A stretch of 64,000 nt of DNA, from positions 2,356,001 to 2,420,000 of the forward strand of contig NZ_JABUQZ010000001.1 in assembly GCF_013342145.1 (NCBI RefSeq), read 5' to 3'. The notes beneath the pieces are model-generated. The model was given only the letters and a program-made list of their open reading frames with translations. It did no database searches and was not told the origin of the DNA. Each line of letters starts with the position of its first letter. The stretch's first letter is position 1. Shown here one piece after another: positions 21,794 through 54,942 of this stretch. Made by a program: the position numbers and the translations under genes. This stretch comes from Haloterrigena gelatinilytica (GTDB lineage: Archaea; Halobacteriota; Halobacteria; Halobacteriales; Natrialbaceae).

Positions 21794-24259
21794 ATGCCGC
21801 TCAGCGAACTCTTCGACACACCAGCGGTTAAGTCGCCGTTCATCTTGTCCGGCAATCTCGCTGATGAAGAGCGACTAGCCCACTTCCCCGCCACGACGAG
21901 AGTACACGCAGGCCTCCTCAACGCAATGGTAGAGCGTGGCCAGGACCTCGTCATTGTGACGCCGTCCGACAGAGCCGAATTTCTGCACCTCCACGCCCTT
22001 GAAGCACTCTTCGGACCCAAGGTAGATGGCCGCAACGCGGTCTTCCTGCTCAGCTCTAACACGGAATTCCGCGAACGGTTCCGGCAGCTTGCTCCGATGT
22101 CGATGCGGCCGCCACACGACAAGTCTCGCTACGCACGTGAGGAGACCCCGATAGCTAACGTGACGAAAGACGGATCCCTAGCGACAGTAACGAAGAACCT
22201 GAACCACCCCGACAAGCCTGCGCGGTTTCTCTTCTCGTACACGAGCACGCGTATTCCTTCAGACGATGTCGGAGACCGGGTTCGATGTGTGATCTACGAC
22301 GACTCTGTGAAGTACGACGAAGAACGCCTCCTCCGGTTATGGAAATGGAAACAGCGAAACGACGTGCCCGCGATAGTCTACTTCACGAGCAATCCGACGT
22401 CAGACCTTGTGGAGAAACTACATGGACGAGCGTTCCTCTGGACGTGGCCACCTCGGTTGTTGTCTGCCGTAGTCGAGAGTGATCGGGATAGTGGGCATGA
22501 ATGGATAGGTGCCGACGAGGAAGTGAGTCCGACAACCCACTGTGCGCAGGTCGTCGCTAGGCGGGAGCAGAACCGCGTTTCGGGGCTCTCTATCGACGTC
22601 CATACGTGCGGTGACGGGGAACTCCTCACAGCCCTAAAACGGGCAAACGACCGTCGAGCGAGGTTCGAGTATTTAGCACGAGAGCTGGACGCCAACATCC
22701 TTAAGCGAGGCCAGCAGCTCGTGCGGTACACTCTGGGGAGTTTCCGCGAACTCTTGACCCCCCTTGACGTGGCGGACTTTCATGCCCGGCGGACGACGAT
22801 ATCAAGCCGGCTTGCGCAACTTGATCGATTCGCGGACCGCATCGCATCCGATCCCGAGGCTAATCCCGCAACCGGCACATTCCGGGATGTAGTCTCGGCT
22901 CTCGAAGAGTTGGAGGAACTTTGGGACGATGTGCCTGCGAGCGACAAGAAACAGGGCGTGCTAGTTGACAACCTGCTCTACGGTGCACTTGACAGAGGGG
23001 ACTCGATTTCCGTCGTCACGGCAACAGAGAGTCAACAGCAGGCACTCAAGACGTTCCTCCAGTCTGAGCACGCTGCTCTCTACCGTGACCTGGGTGACGA
23101 CCTCTCGATACACGATACTCACAGTATTCGCTCGGCAGACCCGACGGACCACATCGTCCTATACGGCGCACTCAGGTGGGGCGACCGTGATCTCCTCCGC
23201 ACCGACGTCGCAACAGACGTTATCGTCATGGCGTATCCCATCGAAATGGGTCTCCTCCACTCACAGGTGGACGCCTTGGAGGATTCCTTTGAGTCGATTG
23301 CGGACACGACGTTCTGGAACGTGATCGACAACCTGACCCGTATCGCTACGGACGAACCTGCGGACGTCGAACGTGTGAACATTGACCTCCCCGAGTATGA
23401 GGAGCCCAGTACGAGCGATCTCGGTGAGGACATCTCCGTAGATGAGGCCGAAGGAGAAGACCTGGGTGAAATCGTGCGAGGGTACGAGACAGATTACGAG
23501 GACAGCGAAGACTTCGGCCCTACCGAGTATGAGACGTCCACCACACAACAGACGACCACCTCTGGTGGACGAACCGAGACCGACTGTCTCGACATCCACT
23601 TTGACGACGGCCTGTCCATGTATCTTCGCAAGGACACTGAAGTGTGCACCGTGCGCGAAGGCCACGACAAACTGTTCCAGAAGAACGCCTCACGCCTCAA
23701 GGAACACGATGTCGTCGTCCACCTGGAAGACACCAACGAGATGCGTGACCAATTATACGCGTTGATTCGTGAACGCGGAGATGTCGGACTGTACTACTAC
23801 GCGAACCTGTGGAAAGTCAATCTTGAAGCCGCCTTGGAGAAGACCGGCGACGACCTTGACGACTTCGTTAAGAAGATGGAGCAACAGGGTCTCAACAAGA
23901 ACCGCGGCACCTACGAGCGGTGGTACGAGATGGAAGTCCACCGAACACGGTCAAAGAAGAGCTTCTGGGCTATCGCCGATGCGTACGATCTCGACAGTGT
24001 CAAAGAGAACTTCAGCCAGGTGTGGAACGCCGTACAGGAGATGGAGACGATATACAGTCGTCTGAAGAAAGCACTCAGACAGACAGCACTTCGATCTGCC
24101 GCCGACGGAACACTAGACGACGTAATGCTGTCGGAGAGTCCGGACATCCGACTCAGCGACTTCGAGATCGGGAAGTACCTCTTCCGACTCAACGTCCAAT
24201 CGATAGAGGAGGGTGTTGAGGCCAAGAGTTCACAGATAGGACGATTACGTGGGCTCTGA
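21794..24259 (+). CDS. drmE: DISARM protein DrmE-like
   Basis: An 821-residue protein placed directly upstream of drmA, drmB and drmC on the same strand, the position and size of DrmE in class 2 DISARM. I see no classical nuclease or Walker motif. The first 540 residues look like a degenerate two-lobe helicase-type fold (VIVTPSDRAEFLHLHALEALFG, VRCVIYDDSVKYDE, ISVVTATESQQQALKTFL, IVLYGALRWGD), then an acidic linker (about 550-600) and a helical C-terminal domain (YYYANLWKVNLEAALEK, TYERWYEMEVHRTRSKKSFWAIADAYDL). In DISARM, DrmE is required in class 2 systems but its biochemical role is not well known. The assignment rests mainly on gene context. Confidence 0.72.
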   Translation: MPLSELFDTPAVKSPFILSGNLADEERLAHFPATTRVHAGLLNAMVERGQDLVIVTPSDRAEFLHLHALEALFGPKVDGRNAVFLLSSNTEFRERFRQLAPMSMRPPHDKSRYAREETPIANVTKDGSLATVTKNLNHPDKPARFLFSYTSTRIPSDDVGDRVRCVIYDDSVKYDEERLLRLWKWKQRNDVPAIVYFTSNPTSDLVEKLHGRAFLWTWPPRLLSAVVESDRDSGHEWIGADEEVSPTTHCAQVVARREQNRVSGLSIDVHTCGDGELLTALKRANDRRARFEYLARELDANILKRGQQLVRYTLGSFRELLTPLDVADFHARRTTISSRLAQLDRFADRIASDPEANPATGTFRDVVSALEELEELWDDVPASDKKQGVLVDNLLYGALDRGDSISVVTATESQQQALKTFLQSEHAALYRDLGDDLSIHDTHSIRSADPTDHIVLYGALRWGDRDLLRTDVATDVIVMAYPIEMGLLHSQVDALEDSFESIADTTFWNVIDNLTRIATDEPADVERVNIDLPEYEEPSTSDLGEDISVDEAEGEDLGEIVRGYETDYEDSEDFGPTEYETSTTQQTTTSGGRTETDCLDIHFDDGLSMYLRKDTEVCTVREGHDKLFQKNASRLKEHDVVVHLEDTNEMRDQLYALIRERGDVGLYYYANLWKVNLEAALEKTGDDLDDFVKKMEQQGLNKNRGTYERWYEMEVHRTRSKKSFWAIADAYDLDSVKENFSQVWNAVQEMETIYSRLKKALRQTALRSAADGTLDDVMLSESPDIRLSDFEIGKYLFRLNVQSIEEGVEAKSSQIGRLRGL

Positions 24260-28171: not shown

Positions 28172-30121
28172 ATGGCAGATTCAGAGATGAAACGCGGTCT
28201 GGCGCAGGTGATGTATCGATTCGGTCCCGAGTCGCTCTTCGACTATGGACGGCGGGGACTGTCGATGAAAGTGTCACGTTGGGAGACCAACAAGATCAGC
28301 TCGCTTGACGCGAACTACGTCGCAGAACAGATCGCCACTCACGCATCCAGCTTCCGGAACGACGACGAGGACCCCTGGGTAGACCTCACGGTGGACGACG
28401 TGGATTTCCGCCGACCGAACCGCGTCGTCGGATCGCTCTACCCGCTGACCATGTACTGTCAGAACCGGAGTTGCCACCGGGTCGTGAGTAAGAAAGAGCC
28501 CAGTCACTTCGTCTACACCAACGGGGAGTGCCCCGAGTGTAGCGATGAACTCCGCCAACTCGCCTTCGTTCTTGTGCACGACTGCGGGAACATGATGTCG
28601 ATCAACCCGCAACCCTGCAGCAATCCGGATCACGGATACGACCACATCTACCTCAACAAGCAGAACATCAACGACCCCCTCTCGTGGCACTTCTACTGTG
28701 GTGAGTGTGGCGACTTCTGTGGGAACATGTCGAAGCGTTGTACCAAGTGCCACAAGGAACGAGTCTACTTCCGTCCGATAGCGAGCAACTCCGTCTACTA
28801 CTCCCAAGGCGACGTCCTCGTCAATCTCCCAATCGACCAACGATACAGCGACGACATCGAATACGGAGAGAGCTGGGCCCGCATACTGATGGCTGCCCAC
28901 CTCGGTGACCTCGACGATGTCGTCGAAGAGGAGGGGAAGACTTACGAAGAACTCGGCCGGATGACGACGGACGAACGCGACGCGAAACGCCGGGAGAAGC
29001 AGATAGAGGATCTGAAGGAGGAAGTGGGCGCAGAACAGGTTGAAAAGATGATTGAAAGCGGTGTGGATATCGAAGACGTCTTCGATGTCGCGGAAGACAC
29101 GATAAAGGGTTCGACGCGAGAAGAGGTCGTTGAAGAGAACCGCGAACGTGTCAAGCTCCCCTCCCAGCGAGGCGGCGATAGTGACGTAGATCAGGCGTAC
29201 TCGACACTCTCTCACGAACTTTTCACCTACCTTCGCTCGACTCAGGGATACGAAGGGAATCTAGACGCTACGGATGGGATGGAACGGCAACCCACTCCTC
29301 TGTCCCTAGACGGTCTATTGGAGCAGGAAGACTTCCTCGAATCGAACCCGGAGGCAGAGGTATACCCGGAAAAACTCCAGAAAGTGAACATTGCGTCGGC
29401 GTGGGTCGTGGACAATCTCCCCCTGCTGAACTACACGTTCGGATTCACACGCGACCGCCCCGAACGGTCGCGGACGGACCTACAGCCCTTCCCCCATCCC
29501 CGGGGTGAGGACAGCACCCCCGTGTACGTTGACCAAACTCCCTCTGAGGCCATCGTCCTCCAAGTGGACCGATCCGCGATCATCGAGTGGCTGGACGAGA
29601 AGGGCGCACTACGTGGTGTCGAGCGCCCCGATACAGACGATGAGAGTGACCTCAAGGAGTGGTTCTTGGAGAACGTGGACACCAACGAACTCCGGGACCA
29701 CTACTCGCCCATCGAAGACGATCTCACACGGGAAGTGTACACACTCCTTCACTCAATGAGCCACGCGTTGATGCGGACGGCGAGCGGACAGTGTGGTCTC
29801 GACAGCAACAGCATCTCGGAGTACGTGATGCCGAGCGTTCCGGCGATCTTCCTATACGCGAGCAGCACTGAACACTTCTCCCTAGGTGGGATGCACACAC
29901 TGTTCAAAACGAGGATTCACCCTTGGGTGGACGAGACAATCGCGGATGTCCAGCAGTGCGTCTACGACCCCGTGTGTGAACACGAGGACGGTGCCTGCCA
30001 CGCGTGCCTTCACATGAGTGAAGTCGCTTGCGAGAGCGCCAACGGGAACCTCGACCGCCGATATCTAGTCGGCGGCGACAGAGGTCGAATACCCGCGTTC
30101 TGGGAGTCAGGGTACGTGTGA
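28172..30121 (+). CDS. drmB: DISARM protein DrmB (DUF1998)
   Basis: A 649-residue protein. The N-terminal third holds Cys pairs (CQNRSCHRVVS, GECPECSDEL, FYCGECGDFCGNMSKRCTKCHKE) for zinc; a coiled-coil-like charged region runs from about 250 to 330. The C-terminal DUF1998 module is clear: LHSMSHALMRTASGQCGLD, VPAIFLYASSTEHFSLGG and the Cys cluster CVYDPVCEHEDGACHACL. In DISARM, DrmB pairs with DrmA. It starts 5 bases after drmA and overlaps drmC by 4 bases, so drmABC is one operon. Confidence 0.92.
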   Translation: MADSEMKRGLAQVMYRFGPESLFDYGRRGLSMKVSRWETNKISSLDANYVAEQIATHASSFRNDDEDPWVDLTVDDVDFRRPNRVVGSLYPLTMYCQNRSCHRVVSKKEPSHFVYTNGECPECSDELRQLAFVLVHDCGNMMSINPQPCSNPDHGYDHIYLNKQNINDPLSWHFYCGECGDFCGNMSKRCTKCHKERVYFRPIASNSVYYSQGDVLVNLPIDQRYSDDIEYGESWARILMAAHLGDLDDVVEEEGKTYEELGRMTTDERDAKRREKQIEDLKEEVGAEQVEKMIESGVDIEDVFDVAEDTIKGSTREEVVEENRERVKLPSQRGGDSDVDQAYSTLSHELFTYLRSTQGYEGNLDATDGMERQPTPLSLDGLLEQEDFLESNPEAEVYPEKLQKVNIASAWVVDNLPLLNYTFGFTRDRPERSRTDLQPFPHPRGEDSTPVYVDQTPSEAIVLQVDRSAIIEWLDEKGALRGVERPDTDDESDLKEWFLENVDTNELRDHYSPIEDDLTREVYTLLHSMSHALMRTASGQCGLDSNSISEYVMPSVPAIFLYASSTEHFSLGGMHTLFKTRIHPWVDETIADVQQCVYDPVCEHEDGACHACLHMSEVACESANGNLDRRYLVGGDRGRIPAFWESGYV

Positions 30122-34636: not shown

Positions 34637-35326
34637 TTACTGAGACTCAGCAACAATTTGTCTAATCATCTCTCGTGCCTCATTCTCTGATAGTCCTTCA
34701 AGCTGCACGTTCGTCAGTGCGTGATTGAATCGCCGTGTCGTCTCGTCTATGACACGTGACGGTTCGTCTGCGAGTTCGTCACACATGGCTCGAACGGCGG
34801 GTTGGTAGCGCGCGAACCAGCGGTCAAACACCTTGTTGACCATCGTCTGGTTGGCAAAGACCGCGTCAGTCGTCGAATAATCGTCGCCACGCGAAGTGAG
34901 TTCCGCGATCCACCAGAGACGGTGGATGGCGTTTGAGTACAAGTCGGAGCCCGCACCAAGGAACTTCTCTCTCATCGCCTCCTCGGAGCGATACTCCCAA
35001 CGGTGCCGGACCAGATCGGGATACCGCACGACTGCCAGCCAGTGCCAGAGGCCTGGATCGCCGGCGGTTCGTCTCGTGATGTCGAGACCACGGTGAATCT
35101 CTTCAGCGAGTGCGCCGTCTATAGCTGTGTCGTACTCCGGGTACTCCTCAAGCACTTGCTTTACTGCCGAATCGATCCTGTCCAGGTCGGCTGTCGGACG
35201 ACCCGGCATGGGCTCCACGTACTCGTTCAGTTGTTCGTCAGTGAGCGTCACCTCACCCTTCATGAATGATTCACCAACGAGGCGACGTCCGTCTTCGGTC
35301 AATCGGTGTAATTCTGTCTCGGTCAC
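34637..35326 (-). CDS. DUF6339-like protein (first copy, left trio)
   Basis: A 229-residue protein. The conserved core is PGLWHWLAVVRYPDLVRHRWEYR, then GAGSDLYSNAIHRLWWIAELT, and VNKVFDRWFARYQPAVRAMCDEL. The same boxes are in the protein at 45950 (AGLWHYLCVVRFPEFVHYRW, GTDAYSNALHRIWWGAELT), so these are paralogues. The pattern of paired Trp residues fits the family I recall as DUF6339, function unknown. It starts with GTG one base after the stop of the 345-residue gene, third in a trio GHKL ATPase - middle protein - DUF6339. Confidence 0.78.
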   Translation of the reverse strand: MTETELHRLTEDGRRLVGESFMKGEVTLTDEQLNEYVEPMPGRPTADLDRIDSAVKQVLEEYPEYDTAIDGALAEEIHRGLDITRRTAGDPGLWHWLAVVRYPDLVRHRWEYRSEEAMREKFLGAGSDLYSNAIHRLWWIAELTSRGDDYSTTDAVFANQTMVNKVFDRWFARYQPAVRAMCDELADEPSRVIDETTRRFNHALTNVQLEGLSENEAREMIRQIVAESQ

Positions 35327-35327
35327 G

Positions 35328-36365
35328 TTAGATCTGGAGGCCTTCCTCCATGAGATGGATCAGTTGCTCTCGGGGGTTTATGTACTCCTGAAGTTCGCTA
35401 TCGATCCGTTGTATCACGTGAGGTAGGGTCTGTGGGTCAGAGAGATCGTCGCTAAGACGGTAAGTTGCCTCCGACACGTCGCTGGTATCGTAGAGGTTAC
35501 GAGCAAACGTCTGAAGTACCATCTCCTGCCACTCGTGTTCAACGTCACCCTCTGCGTCTACGGCACTCCCAGCCCGAACAAGCAGTTGCACCCACACACC
35601 GTAGCTCACCTGGTCGAGTATCACGTCACGCATCCGAGCCTCGGCCCCGACAGATCCTCTACTCTGGAGGACCTCGGCAATACGGGGATGGTCGGAGTTG
35701 ATCCACAATTTAGGACGACTCTCGTTCCGGAAGTCGAGGTAGTATAGCTTGTTCCCATCTGGGAGGTGAGCGTTTTGTGAGAAACGTACTCGCTCACCAT
35801 CAATGGCGGCTCGCTCTTCGTCGTCTGGGCGGTCAACGACGACGTAGTACAGCGTCCCACTAGCGACGCGGAAGTTCTTTTGCTCGGCATAATCGCTTGA
35901 TCCTTCTCCCGAATGAGATTCTGTGCGAACGAGATACGGACGTAGTTCGACAGTCCCTCGGACAGTGCTCTTCGGAACTTCTAGCGTGACGTTGTATTCA
36001 CCGGGCGTCGTAGGAGCTTCAGAAATGATGACCCGGTCACGGTAGATCGTTTCGTGACAGCGAATGGCTACATAGAGCTTGGCCGGAGGCTGTGCCCGTT
36101 CGTCCTGCGGAAAGACCGCTTGAACCGTCTCCTCAGGCAGGCGTAGTTTCCCGTAGAGAGTGATGGTTTCCCAATCCGGATCATCACTACTGTCGGATGA
36201 CGACACTGCCGACGCGAGGTTGATCTCTGTCTGTGCTGGGTTCAGTTCAAGTGCTGTTTGATTCCCGTCGTCAACGGTGAACGAGTCCAGTTCGAAGTCT
36301 ATTCCCTTATCCCGATAACTGAACGGAAGTGTCGTAGTACGGTGTCGCTGCGAGTGCCTGGTCAC
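35328..36365 (-). CDS. Middle protein of GHKL trio (left copy)
   Basis: A 345-residue protein without a recognised catalytic motif. The N-terminal 180 residues are strand-rich (GIDFELDSFTVDDG, WETITLYGKLRLPEE, GEYNVTLEVPKSTVRGTVELRPYLVRT). The C-terminal half is shared with its paralogue at 44890: RPKLWINSDHPRIAEVLQSRG, ARMRDVILDQVSYGVWVQLLVRAG versus NPQLYLNREHPQVVEVLNNSG, PRLRDVLYDYIEHSVWTQLLMQTA. The GTG start overlaps the stop of the GHKL gene (GTGA). It presumably forms a complex with the GHKL ATPase and the DUF6339 protein. Confidence 0.8.
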   Translation of the reverse strand: MTRHSQRHRTTTLPFSYRDKGIDFELDSFTVDDGNQTALELNPAQTEINLASAVSSSDSSDDPDWETITLYGKLRLPEETVQAVFPQDERAQPPAKLYVAIRCHETIYRDRVIISEAPTTPGEYNVTLEVPKSTVRGTVELRPYLVRTESHSGEGSSDYAEQKNFRVASGTLYYVVVDRPDDEERAAIDGERVRFSQNAHLPDGNKLYYLDFRNESRPKLWINSDHPRIAEVLQSRGSVGAEARMRDVILDQVSYGVWVQLLVRAGSAVDAEGDVEHEWQEMVLQTFARNLYDTSDVSEATYRLSDDLSDPQTLPHVIQRIDSELQEYINPREQLIHLMEEGLQI

Positions 36366-38266
36366 GCTTGATCCTCCTCTGGTGTCTGTAACTCTGCGAG
36401 TATCTCTAGTTGTGTCGCGCCGACATCACCGTGTACTAAGTCAGCGGCTTCATCAGAATGAGAACGACCAGAGAACGAGACTTCATTGACGTGTTCGTCG
36501 GCGACAAGGTGAGCGCATCCATCGTCGTACGACACGGTCACGCCGGATTGTTCGATCTCGACGTAGTCAATGGGAATGTCGTCGTAACGGGATCCGTCCT
36601 CACCAATACCGGTGAGTGAGATGTCGGCACTCCATCCATCGAACTCCTCTGAGAGTACTTTAATTCGACCAGATATCGTCCATGCGTCGCCATTGAAGCG
36701 CGACGAGCTGTCGATCTCAAAGGCAGGGTCGGCGGGCGACGTCGTGGATCGTGGATTCCCACTTCCGTGGATCGGGAATCGATTCAGAACGTTGTCGGAG
36801 AGGGAGTCGCCGTTGCTGCCCTTCGAGATCAAGTGACGGAGGCCGTCGCGCAGCGTTCCGAACATATCGTCAAGTGCCATCCGAAAGCCACGTTGATACT
36901 GCTCACGGAGATTCTCGGTGGACTCCCACTCGTCGTGTTCTGGTGGTTCGGCGAACCGAAGGAACCGGTCGATTTCCCGGTCACTCTTCGACGGAGTCCC
37001 TTCCGGCCGTGCTTCACCAGCGGCTAACACGCCGAAGAAGTTTCGGTCACCATAGGCGACACGGCTCTGGTCGTAGTACTTGACCACCATCCCTGCTCCC
37101 CGGAAGAGCGCGACATTATTCAGGTACGCATCGTTGTCTGCGGGGGATGCGAGACGTGCCGATAATCGGACTGAGCCGTCGGGAGTCTCAGTTCCATCGG
37201 CACGAGGCGGGAGCTTAACGGGAATATCAAGTCCAGCAACGTCTCCGGGGTCTACCAGCGTCTGAGCATCCGTAGTTCTCTCATCATATGCCTCGACGAA
37301 CGGTCGGATCGCCGGGACGCTCTCTACATCGGCCGTCAGTGTCTCGTCTGGCGTTTCGACCGTGATTTCGAGGTCTCCCCGATAGATCGCTGGCCAGAAG
37401 TACTTGACCGAAGCGTCAACGAATTCCTGTGCGAGGTCTTCAACCTCTGGTCGCTCGTCCCGCGTCGGATCCTGAAACTCAACGACCATAGCGCTCGTTC
37501 CGCTGACAGCGGGCCGTTCTACGTGCAGTTGTTCTGCGAGCCGCGACGCGTGCTCCCCCCAGAAGGACTCTGGGCGAGGGCCGTCGTCCGTCTCAATAGG
37601 CTGGCAAAGCCACCCCGCACCTTGGTACGTCGTATCGTCCTCCGGGAGTTGGTGTGTTGGGAATTTAGAGCGGGCGATGAGTCGCGGAGAATCGTCCTCA
37701 CGCACACTATGTGTGAGGTGCGAGTTGAAGACGACCGTCGAAGCACCCGAGAACGTCCAGAGTACGGACTTACCGAGGCCGTACGAGCCGCCGGCGGTGT
37801 CGTCTTGCTTGCTGCTGTAGAGTTCGTCGCGGACTAGCGCGGCGTAGTTCGAGTCTTCGTCCCAGCTTCCGGTCAAGCCGGTCGTGTTTCTGTCTTCAAC
37901 GACGAGGAGGCGGAGTTCGGCATCAGGGTCGTTGACTCGTTCGACGACCCGTTCGTAGCGATGGCCATTATGTGTGTCTGCGACCGCTCGCATCCGTTCA
38001 CCGAGTCTATCGTCCCAGCCGAGTCCGTCAAGGAACTCCTCTTTCTCGTCACCCGTGAGCGTGACGAAACGGAACGTCACTTCAACTGGATCGCCATTCG
38101 GGAGGCCCTGATCGTTCGCGTTTTGGAGGACCTCACGGACGAACGCCTCGGAGTCATGGTCAACGGCGTGTTTGGTCGGATCGTCACCGTAGCGTGGCGC
38201 TCCTGGTCCACCACTGAAGAAGAACCATTCGACCGCTTCGTTGATTTGTATCTGCTCCTGATCCAT
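36362..38266 (-). CDS. GHKL ATPase, MORC/Hsp90-like (left copy)
   Basis: A 634-residue ATPase. The N-box is FVREVLQNANDQG (about 45-57; Glu and Asn for Mg-ATP), the G1-like box is LLVVEDRNTTGLTG (about 118-131) and the G2 box is GGSYGLGKSVLW (about 158-169). The order matches the MutL/MORC/Hsp90 type, and a large S5-like region (FWPAIYRGDLEITVETPD, VALFRGAGMVVKYYD) follows. Prokaryotic MORC-like GHKL ATPases are known from restriction-modification neighbourhoods. A paralogue lies at 43001 in the opposite orientation. It heads a minus-strand trio and is divergent from the cytosine methyltransferase at 38456. Confidence 0.88.
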   Translation of the reverse strand: MDQEQIQINEAVEWFFFSGGPGAPRYGDDPTKHAVDHDSEAFVREVLQNANDQGLPNGDPVEVTFRFVTLTGDEKEEFLDGLGWDDRLGERMRAVADTHNGHRYERVVERVNDPDAELRLLVVEDRNTTGLTGSWDEDSNYAALVRDELYSSKQDDTAGGSYGLGKSVLWTFSGASTVVFNSHLTHSVREDDSPRLIARSKFPTHQLPEDDTTYQGAGWLCQPIETDDGPRPESFWGEHASRLAEQLHVERPAVSGTSAMVVEFQDPTRDERPEVEDLAQEFVDASVKYFWPAIYRGDLEITVETPDETLTADVESVPAIRPFVEAYDERTTDAQTLVDPGDVAGLDIPVKLPPRADGTETPDGSVRLSARLASPADNDAYLNNVALFRGAGMVVKYYDQSRVAYGDRNFFGVLAAGEARPEGTPSKSDREIDRFLRFAEPPEHDEWESTENLREQYQRGFRMALDDMFGTLRDGLRHLISKGSNGDSLSDNVLNRFPIHGSGNPRSTTSPADPAFEIDSSSRFNGDAWTISGRIKVLSEEFDGWSADISLTGIGEDGSRYDDIPIDYVEIEQSGVTVSYDDGCAHLVADEHVNEVSFSGRSHSDEAADLVHGDVGATQLEILAELQTPEEDQA

Positions 38267-38455: not shown

Positions 38456-39571
38456 ATGAAGGTAGCCGCAGTGGATCTGTTCTGCGGGGCCGGCGGACTC
38501 AGTTATGGCCTCCAGCAAGCCGGCATCTCGGTCGTTGCAGGGATTGATCATGACCGAGACTGTGAGCACCCGTACGAACAGAACATAAACGGCGAATACG
38601 TACGAGCGGACATCCCCGCGTTGGCACAGGATCCCGAACCAATCGCACAGATGTATCCGTGGGATGCAGACCTAAAGGTCCTCGCAGCATGCGCACCTTG
38701 TCAACCATACTCTACGATGGGACATTCGAAGGGAGAGGGCCACGAGGACCATCAAAAATGGGGGCTGCTAAACGAGGTGTCACGGATCGTAGAGTACGTT
38801 GAACCGGACGTAGTCGTCACCGAAAACGTACTCCAAGTGAAACAGGAGGATGGCGTCTACGACGCGTTCATCGAGAGCCTTGAATCCCAAGGTTATCAGG
38901 TCAACAGCGACGATAACAAGAACGTCTATTGTCCCGAATACGGAATCCCACAGAAGCGGAAGCGGTGGGTTGTCATGGCGTCCAAGCGTGGCTCCCTCTC
39001 TCTGCCCGACCCCCCGATTCAGAACGAGGACGACTATCCAACGGTCAAGAACACGATCGATCACTTGCCACCAATTGAAGCTGGAGAAGTTAGTGACGTG
39101 AACGACGTGCATAGAGCACGTTCTCTCTCGAAAAAGAACCTGGAACGTATCGATAACATGGAGCCCGGTGGAGATTGGACTCTCTGGGAAGAGGCGGGCC
39201 TTGATCACCTCCTTGCAGACTGCCACCGGAAGGCAAGTGGACGGTCGTACAAGGCACCCTACAGCCGGATGCGACCCGACGAACCCTCTCCGACGATCAC
39301 GACGCAGTTCTACAATTACGGGAGTGGTCGCTTCGGACACTACGATACAGATCAGAATCGGGCACTCTCACTCCTCGAGGGAGCATTGCTTCAGACATTC
39401 CCGGAGGACTACGACTTCTACGACGAGTGGGAGGACGTCGGCGTGTCAAACCTGGGCCGAATGATCGGTAATGCAGTCCCCCCGAAGCTCGGTGAGTACA
39501 TGGGAAAGGCGATCCTCTCGCACGTCGGCGCGGCAGCGCCGTCTGTTGAGTCCACCGTCGCCGACGATTGA
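38456..39571 (+). CDS. DNA (cytosine-5-)methyltransferase
   Basis: A 371-residue C5-methylase with all key motifs in order: I DLFCGAGGLS (7-16), IV with the catalytic Cys in ACAPCQPYS (81-83 PCQ), VI VVTENV, VIII QKRKRW, and IX/X RMIGNAVPPKLG near the C-terminus. The target-recognition region lies between about 190 and 300. It transfers a methyl group from SAM to cytosine C5 in a DNA site not deducible here. It could serve as drmMII for the DISARM set 7.4 kb upstream or, more likely from position, as the modifying enzyme of the GHKL/GIY-YIG cluster. It is followed after 10 bases by a glycosylase gene. Confidence 0.93.
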   Translation: MKVAAVDLFCGAGGLSYGLQQAGISVVAGIDHDRDCEHPYEQNINGEYVRADIPALAQDPEPIAQMYPWDADLKVLAACAPCQPYSTMGHSKGEGHEDHQKWGLLNEVSRIVEYVEPDVVVTENVLQVKQEDGVYDAFIESLESQGYQVNSDDNKNVYCPEYGIPQKRKRWVVMASKRGSLSLPDPPIQNEDDYPTVKNTIDHLPPIEAGEVSDVNDVHRARSLSKKNLERIDNMEPGGDWTLWEEAGLDHLLADCHRKASGRSYKAPYSRMRPDEPSPTITTQFYNYGSGRFGHYDTDQNRALSLLEGALLQTFPEDYDFYDEWEDVGVSNLGRMIGNAVPPKLGEYMGKAILSHVGAAAPSVESTVADD

Positions 39572-39581
39572 GTGAGAACTG

Positions 39582-40217
39582 ATGTCGTCTGAGATGGAGC
39601 ACCGATTTCGGACAAACCTGCTTGAATGGGGGAAGGAGAACCGCCGCGAATACCCGTGGCGGGAACCGGATCGAACACTGTACGAGGTATTCATAGCGGA
39701 GTTCTTCCTGACTCAGACACCGGCTGACAACGTTGCAGGGGTCTATCCGAGGTTCCTGGAACGGTTCCCCACGCTGGAAGAGCTAGCGGAGGCCAGTGAG
39801 CACGAACTCGTCGAAGTTATTGAGCCCCTCGGATTCCAAAACATGCGCGCAGAGGCGCTGAAGCAGATCGCCTCAACGTACGACCACCTCCCCACCGAGC
39901 CGGAATCGCTGATGGAACTTCCGCGAGTGGGCCGGTACGTGGCGAACGCCACGTTGTGCTTTGCTCGTGGTGACCGATTGCCGGTACTTGACAGGAACGT
40001 CGAGAGGGTGTACAGTCGAGTATTTCGAGATGCATGGCCCGAAACAGAAGCGGATCAGTTGGCTTTCACGCAGAGACTGGTGCCTGATGACGCCCGTGCG
40101 TACAACCTCGCCCTGCTTGATTTCGGTGCGCTGGTCTGTCAGACTGAACCGTTGTGTGAGCAGTGTTTCGCCAACGAGTATTGTGTCTACTTCCAAAAAT
40201 CGAGAAGGAGTGCATAG
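39582..40217 (+). CDS. HhH-GPD DNA glycosylase, likely T/G-mismatch type, linked to methyltransferase
   Basis: A 211-residue member of the Nth/MutY family. The helix-hairpin-helix is LPRVGRYVANATL (about 113-125), the catalytic Asp is D137 in PVLDRNVERV, and four Cys (186, 192, 195, 201) form an iron-sulfur site with C-x5-C-x2-C-x5-C spacing. At the place of the Nth catalytic Lys (LPGVGRKTAN) there is Tyr119. Tyr at that position is the hallmark of Mig-type thymine glycosylases, which remove T from T/G mismatches arising by deamination of 5-methylcytosine. Being 10 bases downstream of a C5-methylase fits exactly that repair role, as Mig and Vsr do in other modification systems. Confidence 0.88.
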   Translation: MSSEMEHRFRTNLLEWGKENRREYPWREPDRTLYEVFIAEFFLTQTPADNVAGVYPRFLERFPTLEELAEASEHELVEVIEPLGFQNMRAEALKQIASTYDHLPTEPESLMELPRVGRYVANATLCFARGDRLPVLDRNVERVYSRVFRDAWPETEADQLAFTQRLVPDDARAYNLALLDFGALVCQTEPLCEQCFANEYCVYFQKSRRSA

Positions 40218-40495: not shown

Positions 40496-41269
40496 GTGAC
40501 ATCAGATGGAGAGACCACACGCGAAGAGCCACTTATCCTCCACTGTTTCGCAGACTACGGAACGGAATCAGAGGTACTCAGCGACTTTGGCAACGTAATT
40601 CGTGTCGGAATTGACCCCAAGGACACGAACGAAAGTGCGCCGATCAAGGCAGACGCCCACATTGAAGAAAAAGAGTGGGACCTACCGATAGAGGACGGCA
40701 CTACGTTCGATCTCGGGCTGTTCCACCCGGTCTGCTCACGGTGGGCCGCGACGACGAGTATCTCGGGGGATCCCGATGAGCACGAGAACATGATCCCGAG
40801 TGCACGGATACTCGCCGAGAAGTACTGTGATCACTACGTCATCGAAAACGTTCCGCGCGCACCCCTTAACGATCCCGTTGTGTTGAACGGGCGGATGTTT
40901 GGTATGCCGATCGAATACGAACGCGCGTTCGAGACTTCGTTCAAGGTTCCACAGCCACCCCGTGAGAAACGGTTCTTGACTACAGATGGATCGTCTGAGA
41001 AAGCTGAGACCTCGTCGTTCTTCTTCTCCGAACGGTCCAGAGAGTGGTGGGCAGCGGTCAAAAACTACTCACCAAGGTCGTATCCGAAGAGTCACATAGC
41101 GAAGAACGCGATTCCCGCGCCATTCATTTACTACCTGGTTCGGGTGTGGTTGATGGTGTACGAGGACGAACAAGGAATCTCGGAGGGGCGAGTGGACTAC
41201 TCCGACTACAATGAGCGAATGGACATCAAGCGCAAAAGTGAGGACAACCGTCAGTTAGACGAGTTCTGA
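40496..41269 (+). CDS. Divergent DNA methyltransferase-like protein
   Basis: A 257-residue protein beginning with GTG. It has the layout of a short, phage-type C5 methylase: a first strand with cofactor-like loop (ILHCFADYGTESEVLSDFG), an acidic second strand (RVGIDPKDTN), the sequence FHPVCSRWAATTS where the catalytic PCQ loop should be, the motif VI IENVPRAPLNDPVVLNGRMFG and a C-terminal AIPAPFIYYLVRVW resembling motif X. The glycine-rich motif I is poor, and PCQ is changed to PVC, so the Cys is shifted; activity is uncertain. It may have become a non-catalytic or differently acting DNA-recognising subunit. Confidence 0.7.
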   Translation: MTSDGETTREEPLILHCFADYGTESEVLSDFGNVIRVGIDPKDTNESAPIKADAHIEEKEWDLPIEDGTTFDLGLFHPVCSRWAATTSISGDPDEHENMIPSARILAEKYCDHYVIENVPRAPLNDPVVLNGRMFGMPIEYERAFETSFKVPQPPREKRFLTTDGSSEKAETSSFFFSERSREWWAAVKNYSPRSYPKSHIAKNAIPAPFIYYLVRVWLMVYEDEQGISEGRVDYSDYNERMDIKRKSEDNRQLDEF

Positions 41270-41335: not shown

Positions 41336-42862
41336 ATGGGCGAGAACAAGTGTCACGTATATCTGGATCGAGAGTCAAACTCGTCGTACGTCGGGGACCC
41401 GTTCGTCGGTGTGCCCATCTCCCGCGACATCATTGAAGCCGTCGCTACTCAGTATCACGTAGAGTCCCATTCACTCGCCAGAGCCCTGCGAGAAGTGCGA
41501 AACACGTCCGTGATTAACGTTGAAACCCTCTTCACGGGTTTTGATCCTCTTCCTGTCGGTAGAAGTGACGATGGGCTGTTGTACGTACTAGCCGAGGCGG
41601 ACGGATGTTGGGACACTGTGGCCAGCCGAATCGGACTCACAGAAGATGGCCGAGAAGCCGTAGCGGCCGCTCACGACTGGCAAGTCCGAGAAGTGATTAA
41701 AGACAGAGAAGTGAGAGGTGGCGGCGGGTTCGTCGTCTCCTGCTCGGAGTTTCCCGTAGACGCTATTGACGATATCGTAGCGGTGGTGGCCAAGACCAGA
41801 CTGACGAATCGACAGGCGACGTCTTGGATCCTCTCACAGTACGTCCCAGGTAGTGATGCAATCGCCCGAATACTCTCGGTCCCCGAGTCGATCGTTCAGT
41901 CGGAGCTCGCCACCGTTGACCAGGCTACGCGGCAGAGCGCGGCAGAGATACGAACTCTCAACGTCCCCGGACCACTCACTCGCCTTGAACCGGAGCCCCA
42001 GGCCTCAACGTGGATGGGGCTTAATTGGTCTAGATGGTTCGACCTTCAAGACTGGAAAACGCTCCGTAAAGAACTGCCACGCCGCCCAGGCCTCTACCGA
42101 GTTCGACACTCAGAACTCCCGGGATTGATGTACATTGGGGAGTCGGGATCCGAGGGAGGCGTTCGACAGCGCGTAGGGTTAGGTCTGTCAGCCGGAGTAA
42201 ATGAATCAAATCAACAGACTAGTGACAAACACGGTGCTGCCCATCCTCTCCAGCAAATTACTGAGATCGCGGGGGGTAAGATGGAGGTCTCTGTTACTAC
42301 ACCTCCAATATCGTCGAATCAAAGACATCGCCGCGCCATAGAGGCGACTCTGGTGGCGGTCTGTCGGCGAGAAATTGGCTGGACACCTATGGTCCAACTG
42401 AACCGAGAGCCTGCTGTGCACGTAAGCGACTCCGACGGCGAGTTACATCATGAGTTAAGGGACATCGCAGAACGGTCCTCATACACCGTACCGTCGTGGC
42501 AGCCCTGGCGTGATGTGACCGCCCCACAATGGGTGGGTCTCAACTGGACCGAGAGCCGTCCGCTCTCTGAGCGAGACGGGATCAACAGTAGTGGAGTACA
42601 TGCGTTTCGACTGTGGCGGGAGGATCAAACGGGGGAATGGTGGGATCAAACGGTCCAAGAAGTGGGTACGACCGGATCGATATCAAGTCGGCTGTTCAAA
42701 CTGCAGAACGAGTATGGAGACGAGATGCGTTTCTCTGTCGTCACCCTTGACGGGCTAAGCTCTGACACACAACGTCGGTCGCGTGAACTCAGAGAAACCC
42801 GCTACGATCTCGTCGGCGCACACTACCTGGCCACTGGCACTCCCCCGAAGGCACAGTTCTGA
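41336..42862 (+). CDS. GIY-YIG nuclease-like protein, candidate restriction effector
   Basis: A 508-residue protein. The GIY-YIG domain is in the middle: RPGLYRVRHSELPGLMYIGESG (GLY near 252 and YIG near 266), an Arg in GGVRQRVGLGL, and the metal-binding Glu in RRAIEATLVAVCRREIG with a late Asn (VQLN). The N-terminal 230 residues are helical and unassigned. The C-terminal 130 residues begin with the same lead-in (WVGLNWTESRP versus WMGLNWSRWF) and look like a second, degenerate GIY-YIG copy (GVHAFRLWREDQTGEWW). Placed between methylase genes and a GHKL trio, it is the best candidate for the DNA-cutting subunit. Confidence 0.78.
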   Translation: MGENKCHVYLDRESNSSYVGDPFVGVPISRDIIEAVATQYHVESHSLARALREVRNTSVINVETLFTGFDPLPVGRSDDGLLYVLAEADGCWDTVASRIGLTEDGREAVAAAHDWQVREVIKDREVRGGGGFVVSCSEFPVDAIDDIVAVVAKTRLTNRQATSWILSQYVPGSDAIARILSVPESIVQSELATVDQATRQSAAEIRTLNVPGPLTRLEPEPQASTWMGLNWSRWFDLQDWKTLRKELPRRPGLYRVRHSELPGLMYIGESGSEGGVRQRVGLGLSAGVNESNQQTSDKHGAAHPLQQITEIAGGKMEVSVTTPPISSNQRHRRAIEATLVAVCRREIGWTPMVQLNREPAVHVSDSDGELHHELRDIAERSSYTVPSWQPWRDVTAPQWVGLNWTESRPLSERDGINSSGVHAFRLWREDQTGEWWDQTVQEVGTTGSISSRLFKLQNEYGDEMRFSVVTLDGLSSDTQRRSRELRETRYDLVGAHYLATGTPPKAQF

Positions 42863-43000
42863 CCCCAATCGGGGGACTACACCGGCGACGTACCGCACAT
42901 ATTTATGTCGGAAGGGGAGAGTTGTGGCAATTATGAATCGTAGCACACACTTTTCCGACATATCTGGGGTCACACCCGCTAGTGCCAGTGGGGTGTCGTG

Positions 43001-44890
43001 ATGAGCGGTCAGTGGGGATTCACCACGTCTCGACCAACTGATGCTCGGTACGGTGACGACGTCGCAAAGTACGCGATGTCGCACGGTGAACCGGGGCTGA
43101 AGACGTTCGTTCGGGAGGTATTGCAGAACTCGAATGACGCACGGTTGGACAACGATCAACCAGCACGGGTCACGTTCAAGTTGGAATCCTTACAGGGTGA
43201 CGAGGCAATAGAGTACCTTAGAGCACTTGATATCGAGACGTGGTCCGAACACGCTAATTTAGCGACAGATACGGAGAGCGGCAAGCACATCGCTGAGGCG
43301 ATCAAGCGCATAAAAGACGACGAGAAGATCCGTATTCTGACCATCGAGGACGAAAACACAGAGGGTCTACTCGGTGAGGAGAACGCCGACGAATCAAACT
43401 TTACCGCTCTGGTCCGCGACGTCCTGTTCAGCAGTAAATCAGGGGATACTGCCGGCGGGAGTTACGGTCTGGGGAAGGCTGTCCTCTGGCTGTACTCGGG
43501 CCTGTCACTCGTCATGTTCAACTCAACGTTGAGCGAACCCGACCCGAAAGACAAGTCCCCCCGATTGATCGGTCGGACGCGCTTGCCGACGCACAAGTCG
43601 GAGGACGGCGATACGGTGTACCAAGGGCACGGTTGGTACGGTGGTCTGAACGGCAATGAGGAGGGTGCAAGGCCGGAGTCCATCTGGGGAGAAGAAGCTG
43701 AAGCGATAGCGGATGGCCTCCAGTTGGGTCGTCCGGACGGACCAGGAACGAGCATCCAAGTTGTGGACTTCCGGGTACCTACAGCGGAAGAGCGACTGGA
43801 CAACGAAGAGTTAGCGGACCAGATCACGGAGATGGCAATCGAATGGTTCTGGCCCGCGATTTATCGTGGCGATCTGGAGGTAGCAGTCAAAGTAGAAGGT
43901 GAGACGAAGCAAGCAAGTATCGACGAGTATCCGCAGTACGAACCCTTTACGAGCTGTCTGGACGACCGTGCTAACTCGGTCAGCCAGCTGGACGAACCTG
44001 GAGATGTCGCGCAAGCGGCCATATCACTTGACGTCCCAGAGAAGAGTGACGGGAGTAGCGGTGCAGACGGCCAACTTGATTTGCTAGTTCGGCGTGCAGA
44101 TACGAGCGAGTATCAGCATCAGAACGAGGTGGCGTTCGTTCGAGGTTCGGGGATGGTTGTTGAGTACTACGACCGAAACCGAGTCGTTGTCGGGAACCAG
44201 GACTTCCACGCCGTCCTCCTCGGTGGGCGCGCGCGACCTTGGGGAACCGATGAAAGTCCACGAGACGCAGACACTATCGTTGAAGAATTCTTGACCGCTG
44301 CGGAGCCACCTCAGCACGACGAGTGGGTGCGAACGGAGACACTGGCGAACACCTACTCTCGGGGATTCCGGACCGCAGTAGAGGGTATCAAGTCTGACGT
44401 GACCGAAACGTTACGTGGACTCGTCGCACCTGACGTTGACAGAGGCGCGACTGGACCTCAGCGTCTGGGAAACCGGTTCAAAATCGGAAACGAATCACGA
44501 AGTGGTCGTTCTGATCGTGAGTCACCCAGTAGTCAGCGTGTCACTGGAAACACGAACATCTCGTTCGACGAGGTGTACACACACTGGTCGTTCAACGGTG
44601 AGGTGGAGCCTTTGAGCGACCGTAACGAGATACGGGCAGTCACCGTCTCACTGGTCCGGATGGCAGAGGAGAGAGCGACATCGGATCGCCTCCCCGTACA
44701 GAACATCTCGTCAGATACGGCTGGGGTCTCGATATCGCTCCCAGAACAGAAGGGAGTCCAAGTGGGACGGCTGGAGCCAGCACCTGGCACATCGAAGATT
44801 TCCTTTGAGGGAATCTCAACGGAGGACCACAGACAAGTAGAAACCAGATTGAAGGTATCGGTTGACGTGGCAGAACGGAGGGACGAGTAA
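43001..44890 (+). CDS. GHKL ATPase, MORC/Hsp90-like (right copy)
   Basis: A 629-residue paralogue of the protein at 36362. The N-box is FVREVLQNSNDAR, the G1-like box ILTIEDENTEGLLG and the G2 box GGSYGLGKAVLW. The later region FWPAIYRGDLEVAVKVEGE and VAFVRGSGMVVEYYDRNRVVVG matches box for box. The N-terminus is about 15 residues shorter than that of the left copy. ATG at 43001 is used; a GTG at 42998 is in frame. It is the first gene of the right trio and shares a TAATG overlap with the next gene. Confidence 0.88.
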   Translation: MSGQWGFTTSRPTDARYGDDVAKYAMSHGEPGLKTFVREVLQNSNDARLDNDQPARVTFKLESLQGDEAIEYLRALDIETWSEHANLATDTESGKHIAEAIKRIKDDEKIRILTIEDENTEGLLGEENADESNFTALVRDVLFSSKSGDTAGGSYGLGKAVLWLYSGLSLVMFNSTLSEPDPKDKSPRLIGRTRLPTHKSEDGDTVYQGHGWYGGLNGNEEGARPESIWGEEAEAIADGLQLGRPDGPGTSIQVVDFRVPTAEERLDNEELADQITEMAIEWFWPAIYRGDLEVAVKVEGETKQASIDEYPQYEPFTSCLDDRANSVSQLDEPGDVAQAAISLDVPEKSDGSSGADGQLDLLVRRADTSEYQHQNEVAFVRGSGMVVEYYDRNRVVVGNQDFHAVLLGGRARPWGTDESPRDADTIVEEFLTAAEPPQHDEWVRTETLANTYSRGFRTAVEGIKSDVTETLRGLVAPDVDRGATGPQRLGNRFKIGNESRSGRSDRESPSSQRVTGNTNISFDEVYTHWSFNGEVEPLSDRNEIRAVTVSLVRMAEERATSDRLPVQNISSDTAGVSISLPEQKGVQVGRLEPAPGTSKISFEGISTEDHRQVETRLKVSVDVAERRDE

Positions 44891-45960
44891 TGGCGACTGT
44901 CAATGAGGAAGGCGAAGCAGTAGAACCGGACGAAGAGGGGGAAGATAACGTCCAGACAGGTAGCCTAGTCAGCCAGTCCCTCCCGCATGAGTACCAAGAA
45001 AATGCGCTCGAATTTGATGTCGAATCGTTCCATCTAGATGGGACCCCTCTCGGTGATAGAGGTGACGTTGACGAGGATGAGCAGTTTCTGTCGCTGGTGG
45101 ATGAGGGTAGCTGGAAGACTCTGGAGTTAGAAGGTACGGTTACCGTTGATCAGGATACTGTTGAAGATGTCTTCCCGTTTGACGAGTGGGAAGAGACGCC
45201 GGGCCGTCTCGCACTAGTGAAGGAGAACCCCCTCGCAATGAGTCGAGACCGGCAGATACTCGCCGACTCTCCCTTGGATGGAGGGACCTACGACTTCACT
45301 TTGTGCATCAATCGTAACGATCACCGTGGACGGGTGAAAATCAAGCCGTTCCTCACCAGAACCGAAAAAGGCGACTCTGGTGGGTCGAAACACGCGTCCA
45401 AAGTTGGGGCACGAGTCGCTGACGGGCTCTCGTGGGTCATTCGACTCGACGAGAGGGATGACGGTGGGAGTCTTCTCATGCCGATCATAGAGGATTTCAG
45501 CGACTACGACAGCTTCCCCGACGAAGACCACATCCACTATCTCAGTCTGGAGGCACCCCGGAACCCGCAGCTCTACCTGAACAGGGAACACCCACAGGTG
45601 GTCGAGGTTCTGAACAACTCGGGGGCTACAGGTGGCCCACCGCGGCTACGCGACGTACTCTACGACTACATTGAGCACTCCGTCTGGACGCAGCTATTGA
45701 TGCAGACGGCACGCGACACGAGCCCCGATACCGGCGAACCGGAGTACGGCTGGCAGGAAGACGTATTGGACATCTTCTTGGACGATTTGTACCCGGGTCT
45801 CGGAGACGACGAGGCAGCGATCCAACTTGCCGAGGACGTTCGAAGTCACGTCGATATCCCTGACCTCGTCCAGCGAATCGAACGTGCGGTACATCAACAG
45901 TACGACATCCCGTCCGACACGACGAATCTGATTGAGGAGGCGATCCAAAGTGACGACTGA
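44890..45960 (+). CDS. Middle protein of GHKL trio (right copy)
   Basis: A 356-residue paralogue of the left middle protein at 35328. It shares strand-rich N-terminal parts (GTYDFTLCINRNDHRGRVKIKPFLTRTEK) and the C-terminal box NPQLYLNREHPQVVEVL, PRLRDVLYDYIEHSVWTQLL. The start codon overlaps the stop of the GHKL gene (TAATG) and its end overlaps the next gene by 11 bases. No catalytic motif is seen. Conservation of the order in both trios shows the three proteins work together. Confidence 0.8.
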   Translation: MATVNEEGEAVEPDEEGEDNVQTGSLVSQSLPHEYQENALEFDVESFHLDGTPLGDRGDVDEDEQFLSLVDEGSWKTLELEGTVTVDQDTVEDVFPFDEWEETPGRLALVKENPLAMSRDRQILADSPLDGGTYDFTLCINRNDHRGRVKIKPFLTRTEKGDSGGSKHASKVGARVADGLSWVIRLDERDDGGSLLMPIIEDFSDYDSFPDEDHIHYLSLEAPRNPQLYLNREHPQVVEVLNNSGATGGPPRLRDVLYDYIEHSVWTQLLMQTARDTSPDTGEPEYGWQEDVLDIFLDDLYPGLGDDEAAIQLAEDVRSHVDIPDLVQRIERAVHQQYDIPSDTTNLIEEAIQSDD

Positions 45961-46741
45961 TCTTTACCACCTGCAGAGTGCGGCTCATCCGATGATTGAC
46001 AATCGATTCCTTGCGGACGAGCGTGAGCTCACGGAGGAGGATCTTCGTCCGTACTTACAGCCGCTAGGTCGTTCCATAGACCTAAGTCCGGTAGACGAGC
46101 GGATTAAGGAGATCCGTGCTGATGACGAGATCGACGCTCAGGACTCGCTTATTGACGCCGAGCTAGCGCCGACACTCCATCGGACTCTTGATCTGACACG
46201 CAACGAGGCGGCAGACGCCGGCCTGTGGCACTACCTCTGTGTCGTTCGGTTCCCGGAGTTCGTTCACTACCGGTGGGATCACGTCTTCGATCCGGAGAGC
46301 CCAGATAACATGGAGGAGAAGTTCTTAAAGGCCGGAACGGACGCCTACTCCAACGCACTGCACCGGATCTGGTGGGGTGCTGAGCTCACCTATGAGGAAG
46401 GTGAATCGGGAGAGGCCAAGGACCGGGACTACAGTAGAACGAAGCAAGTCCTCGGTTTCCAAGAACTCGCCAATGACATCCTGGACCACGACTTTGCACG
46501 GTACATCCCTGTTACGCACGCCTGTGGTGATCTCCTCTGTCCCGACACACTGAACGAGATTAAGGAAGAGAGTACGTACGAAGATCCACCGTCAAACAGT
46601 AATATTGCAAGCCGAACGACAACGCTACTCCGAGAGGAACTGACGGTTCGACGTGTCGAGATGATGGAAAAAGACGACATTGTGGAGACGATAAAGGATC
46701 TCCGTGACGACGTGATGCGTCAGGAGGCTGGCTGGTCGTAG
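45950..46741 (+). CDS. DUF6339-like protein (second copy, right trio)
   Basis: A 263-residue paralogue of the protein at 34637, with conserved boxes AGLWHYLCVVRFPEFVHYRW, LKAGTDAYSNALHRIWWGAELT and DFARYIPVTHACGDLL. GTG at 45950 is taken as the start: it lies inside the end of the upstream gene, as in the left trio, while the longer frame adds only basic residues. It has an extra charged loop (YEEGESGEAKDRD) after the Trp-pair box. Function unknown. Confidence 0.78.
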   Translation: MTTDLYHLQSAAHPMIDNRFLADERELTEEDLRPYLQPLGRSIDLSPVDERIKEIRADDEIDAQDSLIDAELAPTLHRTLDLTRNEAADAGLWHYLCVVRFPEFVHYRWDHVFDPESPDNMEEKFLKAGTDAYSNALHRIWWGAELTYEEGESGEAKDRDYSRTKQVLGFQELANDILDHDFARYIPVTHACGDLLCPDTLNEIKEESTYEDPPSNSNIASRTTTLLREELTVRRVEMMEKDDIVETIKDLRDDVMRQEAGWS

Positions 46742-54700: not shown

Positions 54701-54714
54701 GATGGGCGCTGCAG
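54701..54714 (+). repeat. Candidate attR at the tRNA-Arg 3' end
   Basis: ATGGGCGCTGCAGG, identical to the copy at 6024-6037. It covers the 3' acceptor end of the tRNA gene and reconstitutes the gene after integration. Confidence 0.75.
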
Positions 54715-54776
54715 GATTTGAACCCGCGACAGCTTGGTCCGAAGCCAAGTACTCTGTCCAGACTGAGCTAAGCGCC
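54703..54776 (-). tRNA. tRNA-Arg (anticodon TCG)
   Basis: On the minus strand: acceptor GGGCGCT pairs with AGCGCCC; D arm GCTC/GAGT; anticodon stem CTTGG/CCAAG around loop CTTCGGA with anticodon TCG (reads CGA); T arm GCGGG TTCAAAT CCTGC. No intron and no encoded CCA. Its 3' end faces the island and is the integration target. Confidence 0.93.
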
Positions 54777-54942
54777 CTCACCACTGAATTTCCGGCGGTG
54801 CCGTATAAGTCACTCGATTTGGGACGCTTTCGATAGCCACCACCACACGCACCTCGAGTCGACCACCCTCACCTGCACTTCTCAGTCGGTGAAAATTGGC
54901 TCAGGGGGTCTTTGTCGTGGGAAGTCAACGATCGAACGTGCC

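What the first reader, a model, noticed from the sequence alone, without database searches (positions are those of the whole stretch)
39582..40217. Glycosylase with Tyr in place of the catalytic Lys next to a C5-methylase
Tyr119 sits where Nth has its catalytic Lys, as in the Mig thymine glycosylase, and D137 and the iron-sulfur Cys are kept. Beside a C5-methylase this predicts repair of T/G mismatches made by deamination of methylcytosine, or, if linked to defence, excision of modified bases in foreign DNA. The first Cys gap is one residue shorter than usual.
Basis: partly seen in the sequence, partly recalled or inferred. Interest (0 to 1): 0.6.

Follow-up and report, generated by a model that had tools for sequence, protein, structure and literature searches.

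The report
Mismatch-repair glycosylase escorting a DISARM methylase
This salt-loving archaeon carries, directly behind the DNA-methylating gene of a DISARM antiviral island, a small enzyme predicted to repair the T/G mismatches that the methylation causes; the enzyme type is known, but its regular place in archaeal DISARM and methylase islands seems not to have been described.

Summary
ORF 39582-40217 is an intact 211-aa HhH-GPD iron-sulfur glycosylase with Tyr119, Asp137 and C-X5-C-X2-C-X5-C. It starts 10 bases after a C5-cytosine methylase (38456-39571). Tyr alone is a weak argument, because Geobacillus MutY and haloarchaeal MutYs also have it. Better evidence exists: E40, A48 and L176 match the Mig.MthI residues E42/A50/L187 that separate T/G from A/G glycosylases; the predicted structure is closest to Mig (1KEA, Z 27.3, 1.4 A); and the tree, with moderate support, places it with Mig rather than MutY. 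Mig-type genes track C5-methylases: 30 of 33 haloarchaeal loci against 0 of 11 other HhH genes, and 18 of 22 other loci of the phylum. One genome encodes both as one reading frame. Vsr, the bacterial equivalent, was not found in 293 genomes of the order. The methylase scores as DrmMII of a class 2-like DISARM (DrmE-A-B-C upstream). DrmB lies within 20 kb of 17 of 33 Mig-type loci. Most likely the enzyme is a thymine glycosylase that protects the host from its own methylase; nothing indicates a defence effector. New member of the Mig kind; activity is inferred, not shown.

The parts
39582..40217 (+). Mig-type HhH-GPD [4Fe-4S] glycosylase, 211 aa; E40, A48, Y119, D137, L176; Cys 186/192/195/201
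38456..39571 (+). C5-cytosine DNA methylase, 371 aa (motifs APCQPYS, ENV); full-length match to a PADLOC DrmMII model
   Evidence: stop codon 10 bases before the glycosylase start
21794..24259 (+). DrmE of DISARM
   Evidence: PADLOC PDLC02636, 1599 bits
24462..28166 (+). DrmA helicase of DISARM
   Evidence: PADLOC PDLC02576, 2890 bits; DEAD and Helicase_C
28172..30121 (+). DrmB of DISARM
   Evidence: PADLOC PDLC02582, 1541 bits
30028..31005 (+). DrmC, PLD nuclease of DISARM (true start probably about 30118)
   Evidence: PADLOC PDLC02601 matches from residue 31; PLDc_2
40496..41269 (+). Conserved 257-aa partner with a weak C5-methylase-like look (HPxC, IENxP, YERxFE motifs); present in many of the same loci
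   Evidence: low-confidence model, best Foldseek row M.HaeIII at E 7e-3
36362..38266 (-). PDC-M33A-like protein, first of three genes divergent from the methylase (with 35328-36365 and 34637-35326)
   Evidence: PADLOC PDC-M33A 2.7e-22 and PDC-M33C 5.7e-14; DUF6339
42998..44890 (+). Second PDC-M33A-like protein (with 44890-45960 and 45932-46741)
   Evidence: PADLOC PDC-M33A 2.4e-35, PDC-M33C 3.4e-14

Best explanation
The gene encodes a monofunctional thymine (and uracil) DNA glycosylase of the Mig type that escorts the adjacent C5-methylase. The methylase marks host DNA with 5-methylcytosine so that the linked DISARM/restriction genes spare it. Spontaneous deamination of 5mC gives T opposite G. 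The glycosylase flips out that T, with E40 and Y119 contacting the base, A48, L176 and Y24 lining a pocket for its methyl group, and D137 supporting N-glycosidic bond cleavage. The abasic site is then passed to the host's AP endonuclease and short-patch repair. It does the job that Vsr does for Dcm in bacteria. Shown by computation: fold, catalytic and pocket residues, gene order, conserved linkage. Inferred: the reaction itself, the mismatch specificity, and the in vivo role.
For: Best solved relative by sequence is Mig 1KEA; AlphaFold model pLDDT 96, 1KEA first by Foldseek and by VIA-align, Z 27.3 and 1.4 A against 24.4 and 2.3 A for the best MutY. E40, A48, Y119, D137 and L176 equal Mig E42, A50, Y126, D144 and L187; A50V/L187Q turns Mig from T/G to A/G (PMC2714593). 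Methylase-linked relatives keep a small residue at 50 and mostly a large hydrophobic one at 187, while MutYs have V/L and Q/E/N. C5-methylase in the 20-kb stretch: 30 of 33 Mig-type haloarchaeal loci, 0 of 11 other HhH genes. In a 99-genome census all 9 close relatives lie within 5 kb of PF00145 and none of about 92 others within 10 kb. Outside haloarchaea 18 of 22 loci have a methylase within 1.5 kb, as do Thermus and Caldicellulosiruptor plasmids. One genome has methylase and glycosylase in one reading frame. No Vsr found in 293 genomes of the order.
Against: No assay exists. The gene is dispensable: a methylase 89% identical lacks it in G027, where two other genes sit in the gap; a transposase remnant lies in the gap in G051; copies in L038, L045, L051 and L083 have stop codons. 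Many haloarchaeal C5-methylases have no such neighbour. Two Mig pocket residues differ here (F27 is Y24, R47 is Q45). The glycosylase half of the fused protein has lost E42 (now Q) and the hairpin Gly. Three of 33 Mig-type genes have no C5-methylase in reach.
Confidence: 0.8

Rival explanations
1. It is an accessory defence effector: a glycosylase that excises modified or mismatched bases in incoming DNA, making abasic sites that block virus replication or feed DISARM's DrmAB.
For: It sits in a DISARM island; DrmB within 20 kb of 17 of 33 Mig-type loci; in L060 it is directly upstream of DrmA-B-C. Glycosylases can be defence effectors, as the Brig family shows (PMC13160076).
Against: Of the 16 Mig-type loci without DrmB in reach, 14 still have a C5-methylase, so it tracks the methylase. 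The pocket is that of Mig. Brig enzymes belong to the uracil-DNA-glycosylase superfamily, not HhH.
Confidence: 0.08
2. It is a MutY paralogue that removes A opposite G or 8-oxoG.
For: About 33% identity to MutY catalytic domains; NCBIfam's best model is mutY, far under its cut-off.
Against: mutY model scored 151.9 against a cut-off of 286.5; no C-terminal 8-oxoG domain at 211 aa; A48/L176 instead of V/Q; the genome has another, MutY-like gene at C1:1068288.
Confidence: 0.07
3. It excises 5-methylcytosine itself (ROS1/DME-like active demethylation or self-restriction).
For: ROS1 is in the wider fold family (Z 17.5) and the gene lies next to a 5mC-making enzyme.
Against: ROS1 is far more distant than Mig; Tyr replaces the lyase Lys; attacking the partner methylase's own product would damage host DNA.
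Confidence: 0.03

Closest known systems
Mig.MthI (1KEA), T/G and U/G mismatch glycosylase of Methanobacterium thermoautotrophicum
   Same: Whole-length fold, Fe-S cluster, E/A/Y/D/L active-site set, length; from general knowledge Mig too is encoded beside a C5-methylase, on plasmid pFV1
   Different: About 30% identity; F27 is Tyr and R47 is Gln here; first Cys gap one residue shorter; lies in a chromosomal DISARM island of a halophile rather than on a thermophile plasmid
MutY adenine glycosylase
   Same: HhH-GPD fold, Fe-S cluster, catalytic Glu and Asp; some MutYs also have the Tyr
   Different: No C-terminal 8-oxoG-recognition domain; A and L instead of V and Q in the base pocket
Vsr (very short patch repair endonuclease, escort of Dcm)
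   Same: Predicted job: correcting T/G from 5mC deamination next to a C5-methylase
   Different: Unrelated fold (PD-(D/E)xK nuclease) and chemistry (strand nick, not base removal)
DISARM class 2
   Same: DrmE, DrmA, DrmB, DrmC and DrmMII homologues in one island
   Different: Methylase is 7.5 kb from drmC, with other defence genes between; carries a Mig-type glycosylase directly after drmMII

Membership tests
Mig-type thymine mismatch glycosylase | HhH-GPD fold with C-terminal [4Fe-4S] loop, no extra C-terminal domain | tested here: met
Mig-type thymine mismatch glycosylase | Tyr (Mig Y126) and Asp (D144) instead of Nth's Lys/Asp | tested here: met
   Y119 and D137, invariant in 29 aligned relatives
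Mig-type thymine mismatch glycosylase | T/G specificity residues A50 and L187 | tested here: met
   A48 and L176; role of the residues from PMC2714593
Mig-type thymine mismatch glycosylase | Mig F27 and R47 of the methyl pocket | tested here: inconclusive
   Y24 (aromatic kept) and Q45 (changed); one search says these two may not be strictly required
Mig-type thymine mismatch glycosylase | Groups with Mig, apart from MutY, in a tree | tested here: inconclusive
   Fork with Mig and relatives 87/74; MutY and the other short HhH group fall outside
Mig-type thymine mismatch glycosylase | Excises T from T/G mismatches | not testable with these tools
   needs an assay
MutY | V45/Q182-type adenine pocket and C-terminal 8-oxoG domain | tested here: not met
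   A48/L176; 211 aa; mutY model below cut-off
Endonuclease III (Nth) | Catalytic Lys in the hairpin | tested here: not met
   Tyr119; nth model 46 bits against a cut-off of 212
Vsr / very short patch repair | Vsr nuclease domain (PF03852) | tested here: not met
   no Vsr hit on this protein; none in 293 genomes of the order
DISARM class 2 | drmA, drmB, drmC with drmMII and drmE | tested here: met
   full-length PADLOC matches
DISARM class 2 | Protects against viruses; methylase marks self DNA | not testable with these tools
   needs infection assays and methylome

The most novel reading that the evidence does not exclude
The glycosylase takes part in DISARM immunity itself: it makes abasic sites or gaps in DNA carrying T/G, U/G or modified bases, and these become entry points for DrmAB.
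Probability: 0.07. Interest if true: 0.8.

Novelty: new member of a known kind. Interest (0 to 1): 0.42.

Why it matters
Defence systems that methylate cytosine impose a mutation cost on the host: 5mC deaminates to T. Bacteria pair some such methylases with Vsr. These data indicate that haloarchaea, in which no Vsr was found, and other archaea pair them with Mig-type glycosylases instead, and that such a gene lies in or near about two fifths of the haloarchaeal DISARM loci sampled. These genes are annotated as 'hypothetical protein' or 'A/G-specific adenine glycosylase', or modelled as 'nicking endonuclease', so their role is easily missed. If confirmed, this explains how a mutagenic immune methylase is tolerated and offers a simple mutation-spectrum test in genetically tractable haloarchaea.

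Tried and rejected
The argument from Tyr alone was rejected as non-specific. MutY, Nth and Vsr membership was tested and not met. I looked for a replacement T/G repair gene where the glycosylase is missing: G027 has an ATPase-like pair in the gap and G051 a transposase remnant, so no replacement was seen. A phage origin was checked: only MutY-like hits of 36% identity or less. No attachment-site repeat of the tRNA-Arg end was found in the window. The 257-aa neighbour could not be firmly assigned: model pLDDT 59, best Foldseek E 7e-3; its PDB profile hits are short stretches of unrelated protein A constructs. The original Mig papers are not held.

Full report
Observation. The ORF at 39582-40217 (+) is real and intact, 211 aa. 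It matches HhH-GPD in Pfam at 8e-16. The closest solved relative is Mig, 1KEA (4e-31), ahead of all MutY and Nth chains; with a profile of 29 relatives the order is the same (1KEA 5e-59, MutY 9e-49). In an alignment with Mig, MutY and Nth, Y119 sits at Mig Y126 / Nth Lys, D137 at the catalytic Asp, and the cluster motif is C-X5-C-X2-C-X5-C. The shortened first gap is shared by its close relatives (for example L040-L051) and recurs in L067 and L094, while other relatives have the usual X6; it is a clade trait. The upstream gene 38456-39571 is a C5-cytosine methylase, same strand, 10 bases away.

What the Tyr means. Geobacillus MutY and the haloarchaeal MutY-like proteins (L002, L075-L077, L079) also have Tyr there, so Tyr argues against an Nth-type lyase but not for Mig. 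The sharper test is the base pocket. Published mutants show that A50V/L187Q turns Mig from T/G to A/G (PMC2714593). P0001 has A48 and L176 at these positions and keeps E40 (Mig E42) and an aromatic residue at Mig F27. E. coli MutY has V/Q, Geobacillus MutY V/E, haloarchaeal MutY-like proteins L/N. Thus the pocket is Mig's, with one change (Mig R47 is Q45).

Structure and tree. AlphaFold2 with the 29-row alignment gives pLDDT 96. Foldseek ranks 1KEA first. VIA-align gives Z 27.3 at 1.4 A for 1KEA, against 24.4 at 2.3 A for the best MutY and 22.9 for the best Nth. In a maximum-likelihood tree, Mig and the methylase-linked genes, including Caldicellulosiruptor and Thermus plasmid genes, form one group with moderate support (87/74); MutYs and a second group of short haloarchaeal HhH proteins fall outside.

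Linkage to methylases. Of 293 genomes of the order, 41 have a match to P0001 at 1e-30 or better. I read 20-kb stretches around 33 Mig-type loci and around 11 other HhH genes. A profile for C5-methylases finds one in 30 of the 33 Mig-type stretches and in none of the 11 others (Fisher p 5e-8). Comparing the full tables of HhH genes and PF00145 genes in 99 genomes (compared by eye), all nine P0001-like genes lie within 5 kb of a C5-methylase, and none of about 92 other HhH genes lies within 10 kb (apart from a decayed Mig-type remnant in G057, which does; a Mig-type fragment in G029 does not). Outside the haloarchaea, 18 of 22 Mig-type loci in the phylum have a C5-methylase within 1.5 kb. On plasmids the same pair is seen in Thermus thermophilus, Caldicellulosiruptor and Natronobeatus. 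In G225 the methylase and a glycosylase form one 629-aa reading frame, though that glycosylase half has lost the Glu and the hairpin Gly and may be inactive.

Linkage to DISARM. Upstream in the window lie DrmE, DrmA, DrmB and DrmC with full-length PADLOC matches, and the methylase itself matches a DrmMII model over its whole length. The island is mostly 51-62% G+C (43% at its lowest) between flanks of about 66-69%. A DrmB search finds 41 of 293 genomes. Seventeen of the 33 Mig-type loci have DrmB within 20 kb on the same contig, where about 0.2% would be expected by a rough density estimate. These include divergent DISARM loci whose DrmA/B/C are only 24-36% identical to the window's (L060, L062, L065, L067, L070, L074). 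Of the 16 Mig-type loci without DrmB nearby, 14 still have a C5-methylase. The glycosylase therefore follows the methylase, and DISARM is one of the settings in which such methylases live.

Absence of Vsr and loss of the gene. Vsr (PF03852) was not found in any of the 293 genomes, while the control genomes gave the expected hits. The glycosylase is an accessory: it is missing beside an 89% identical methylase in G027 and beside a 70% one in G051, and four copies carry stop codons (L038, L045, L051, L083), while the methylases there remain open.

Mechanism. Best reading: a monofunctional T(U)/G glycosylase that removes the product of 5mC deamination, followed by host AP-site repair, protecting the host from its own defence methylase. 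Shown: fold, residues, linkage. Inferred: substrate and role. A defence-effector role cannot be excluded but has no positive evidence; the known phage-restricting Brig glycosylases belong to another superfamily.

Novelty. The enzyme kind (Mig) and the idea of a methylase escort (Vsr, Mig) are known; PADLOC even has a related model, named 'Type II nicking endonuclease'. A recent survey of archaeal R-M systems speaks only of Vsr, and the words mismatch, DISARM and glycosylase do not occur in its main text. I found no paper in the held open library that describes Mig-type glycosylases in DISARM loci, but subscription papers were not searched. Hence: a new member of a known kind, with a recurrent DISARM association that looks undescribed.

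Noticed in passing
window 40496-41269: 257-aa protein without Pfam match, conserved beside the methylase and glycosylase in many loci; HPxC, IENxP and YERxFE motifs look like a strongly diverged C5-methylase, and a weak model matches M.HaeIII best.
   Followed up: partly
window 34637-38266 and 42998-46741: Two PDC-M33-like three-gene sets (with DUF6339 proteins) flank the methylase-glycosylase pair on both sides; further divergent copies occur in the same islands of relatives.
   Followed up: partly
window 41336-42862: 508-aa protein with a GIY-YIG-nuclease-like stretch (GLYRVRH...LMYIGES...R) read by eye; no Pfam match.
   Followed up: no
L059:9758-11644 (-): C5-methylase and Mig-type glycosylase in one 629-aa reading frame; the glycosylase half has E to Q and hairpin G to E changes and may be inactive.
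   Followed up: partly
L055:9620-12800: Mig-type glycosylase without a C5-methylase in reach, beside a Piwi-domain (Argonaute-like) gene.
   Followed up: no
window 54703-54777: tRNA-Arg gene at the right edge of the low-G+C island, a possible integration site; no repeat of its end was found in the window.
   Followed up: partly
L003 (same genome, C1:117263-117862): A second short HhH glycosylase with A/Y in the pocket, in a separate haloarchaeal group (L069, L071, L073, L078) without a C5-methylase nearby; specificity unknown.
   Followed up: partly
L038, L045, L051: Nonsense changes in decayed glycosylase copies are all at Trp or Gln codons, as C-to-T or G-to-A change would give; too few to test whether methylated sites are involved.
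   Followed up: no
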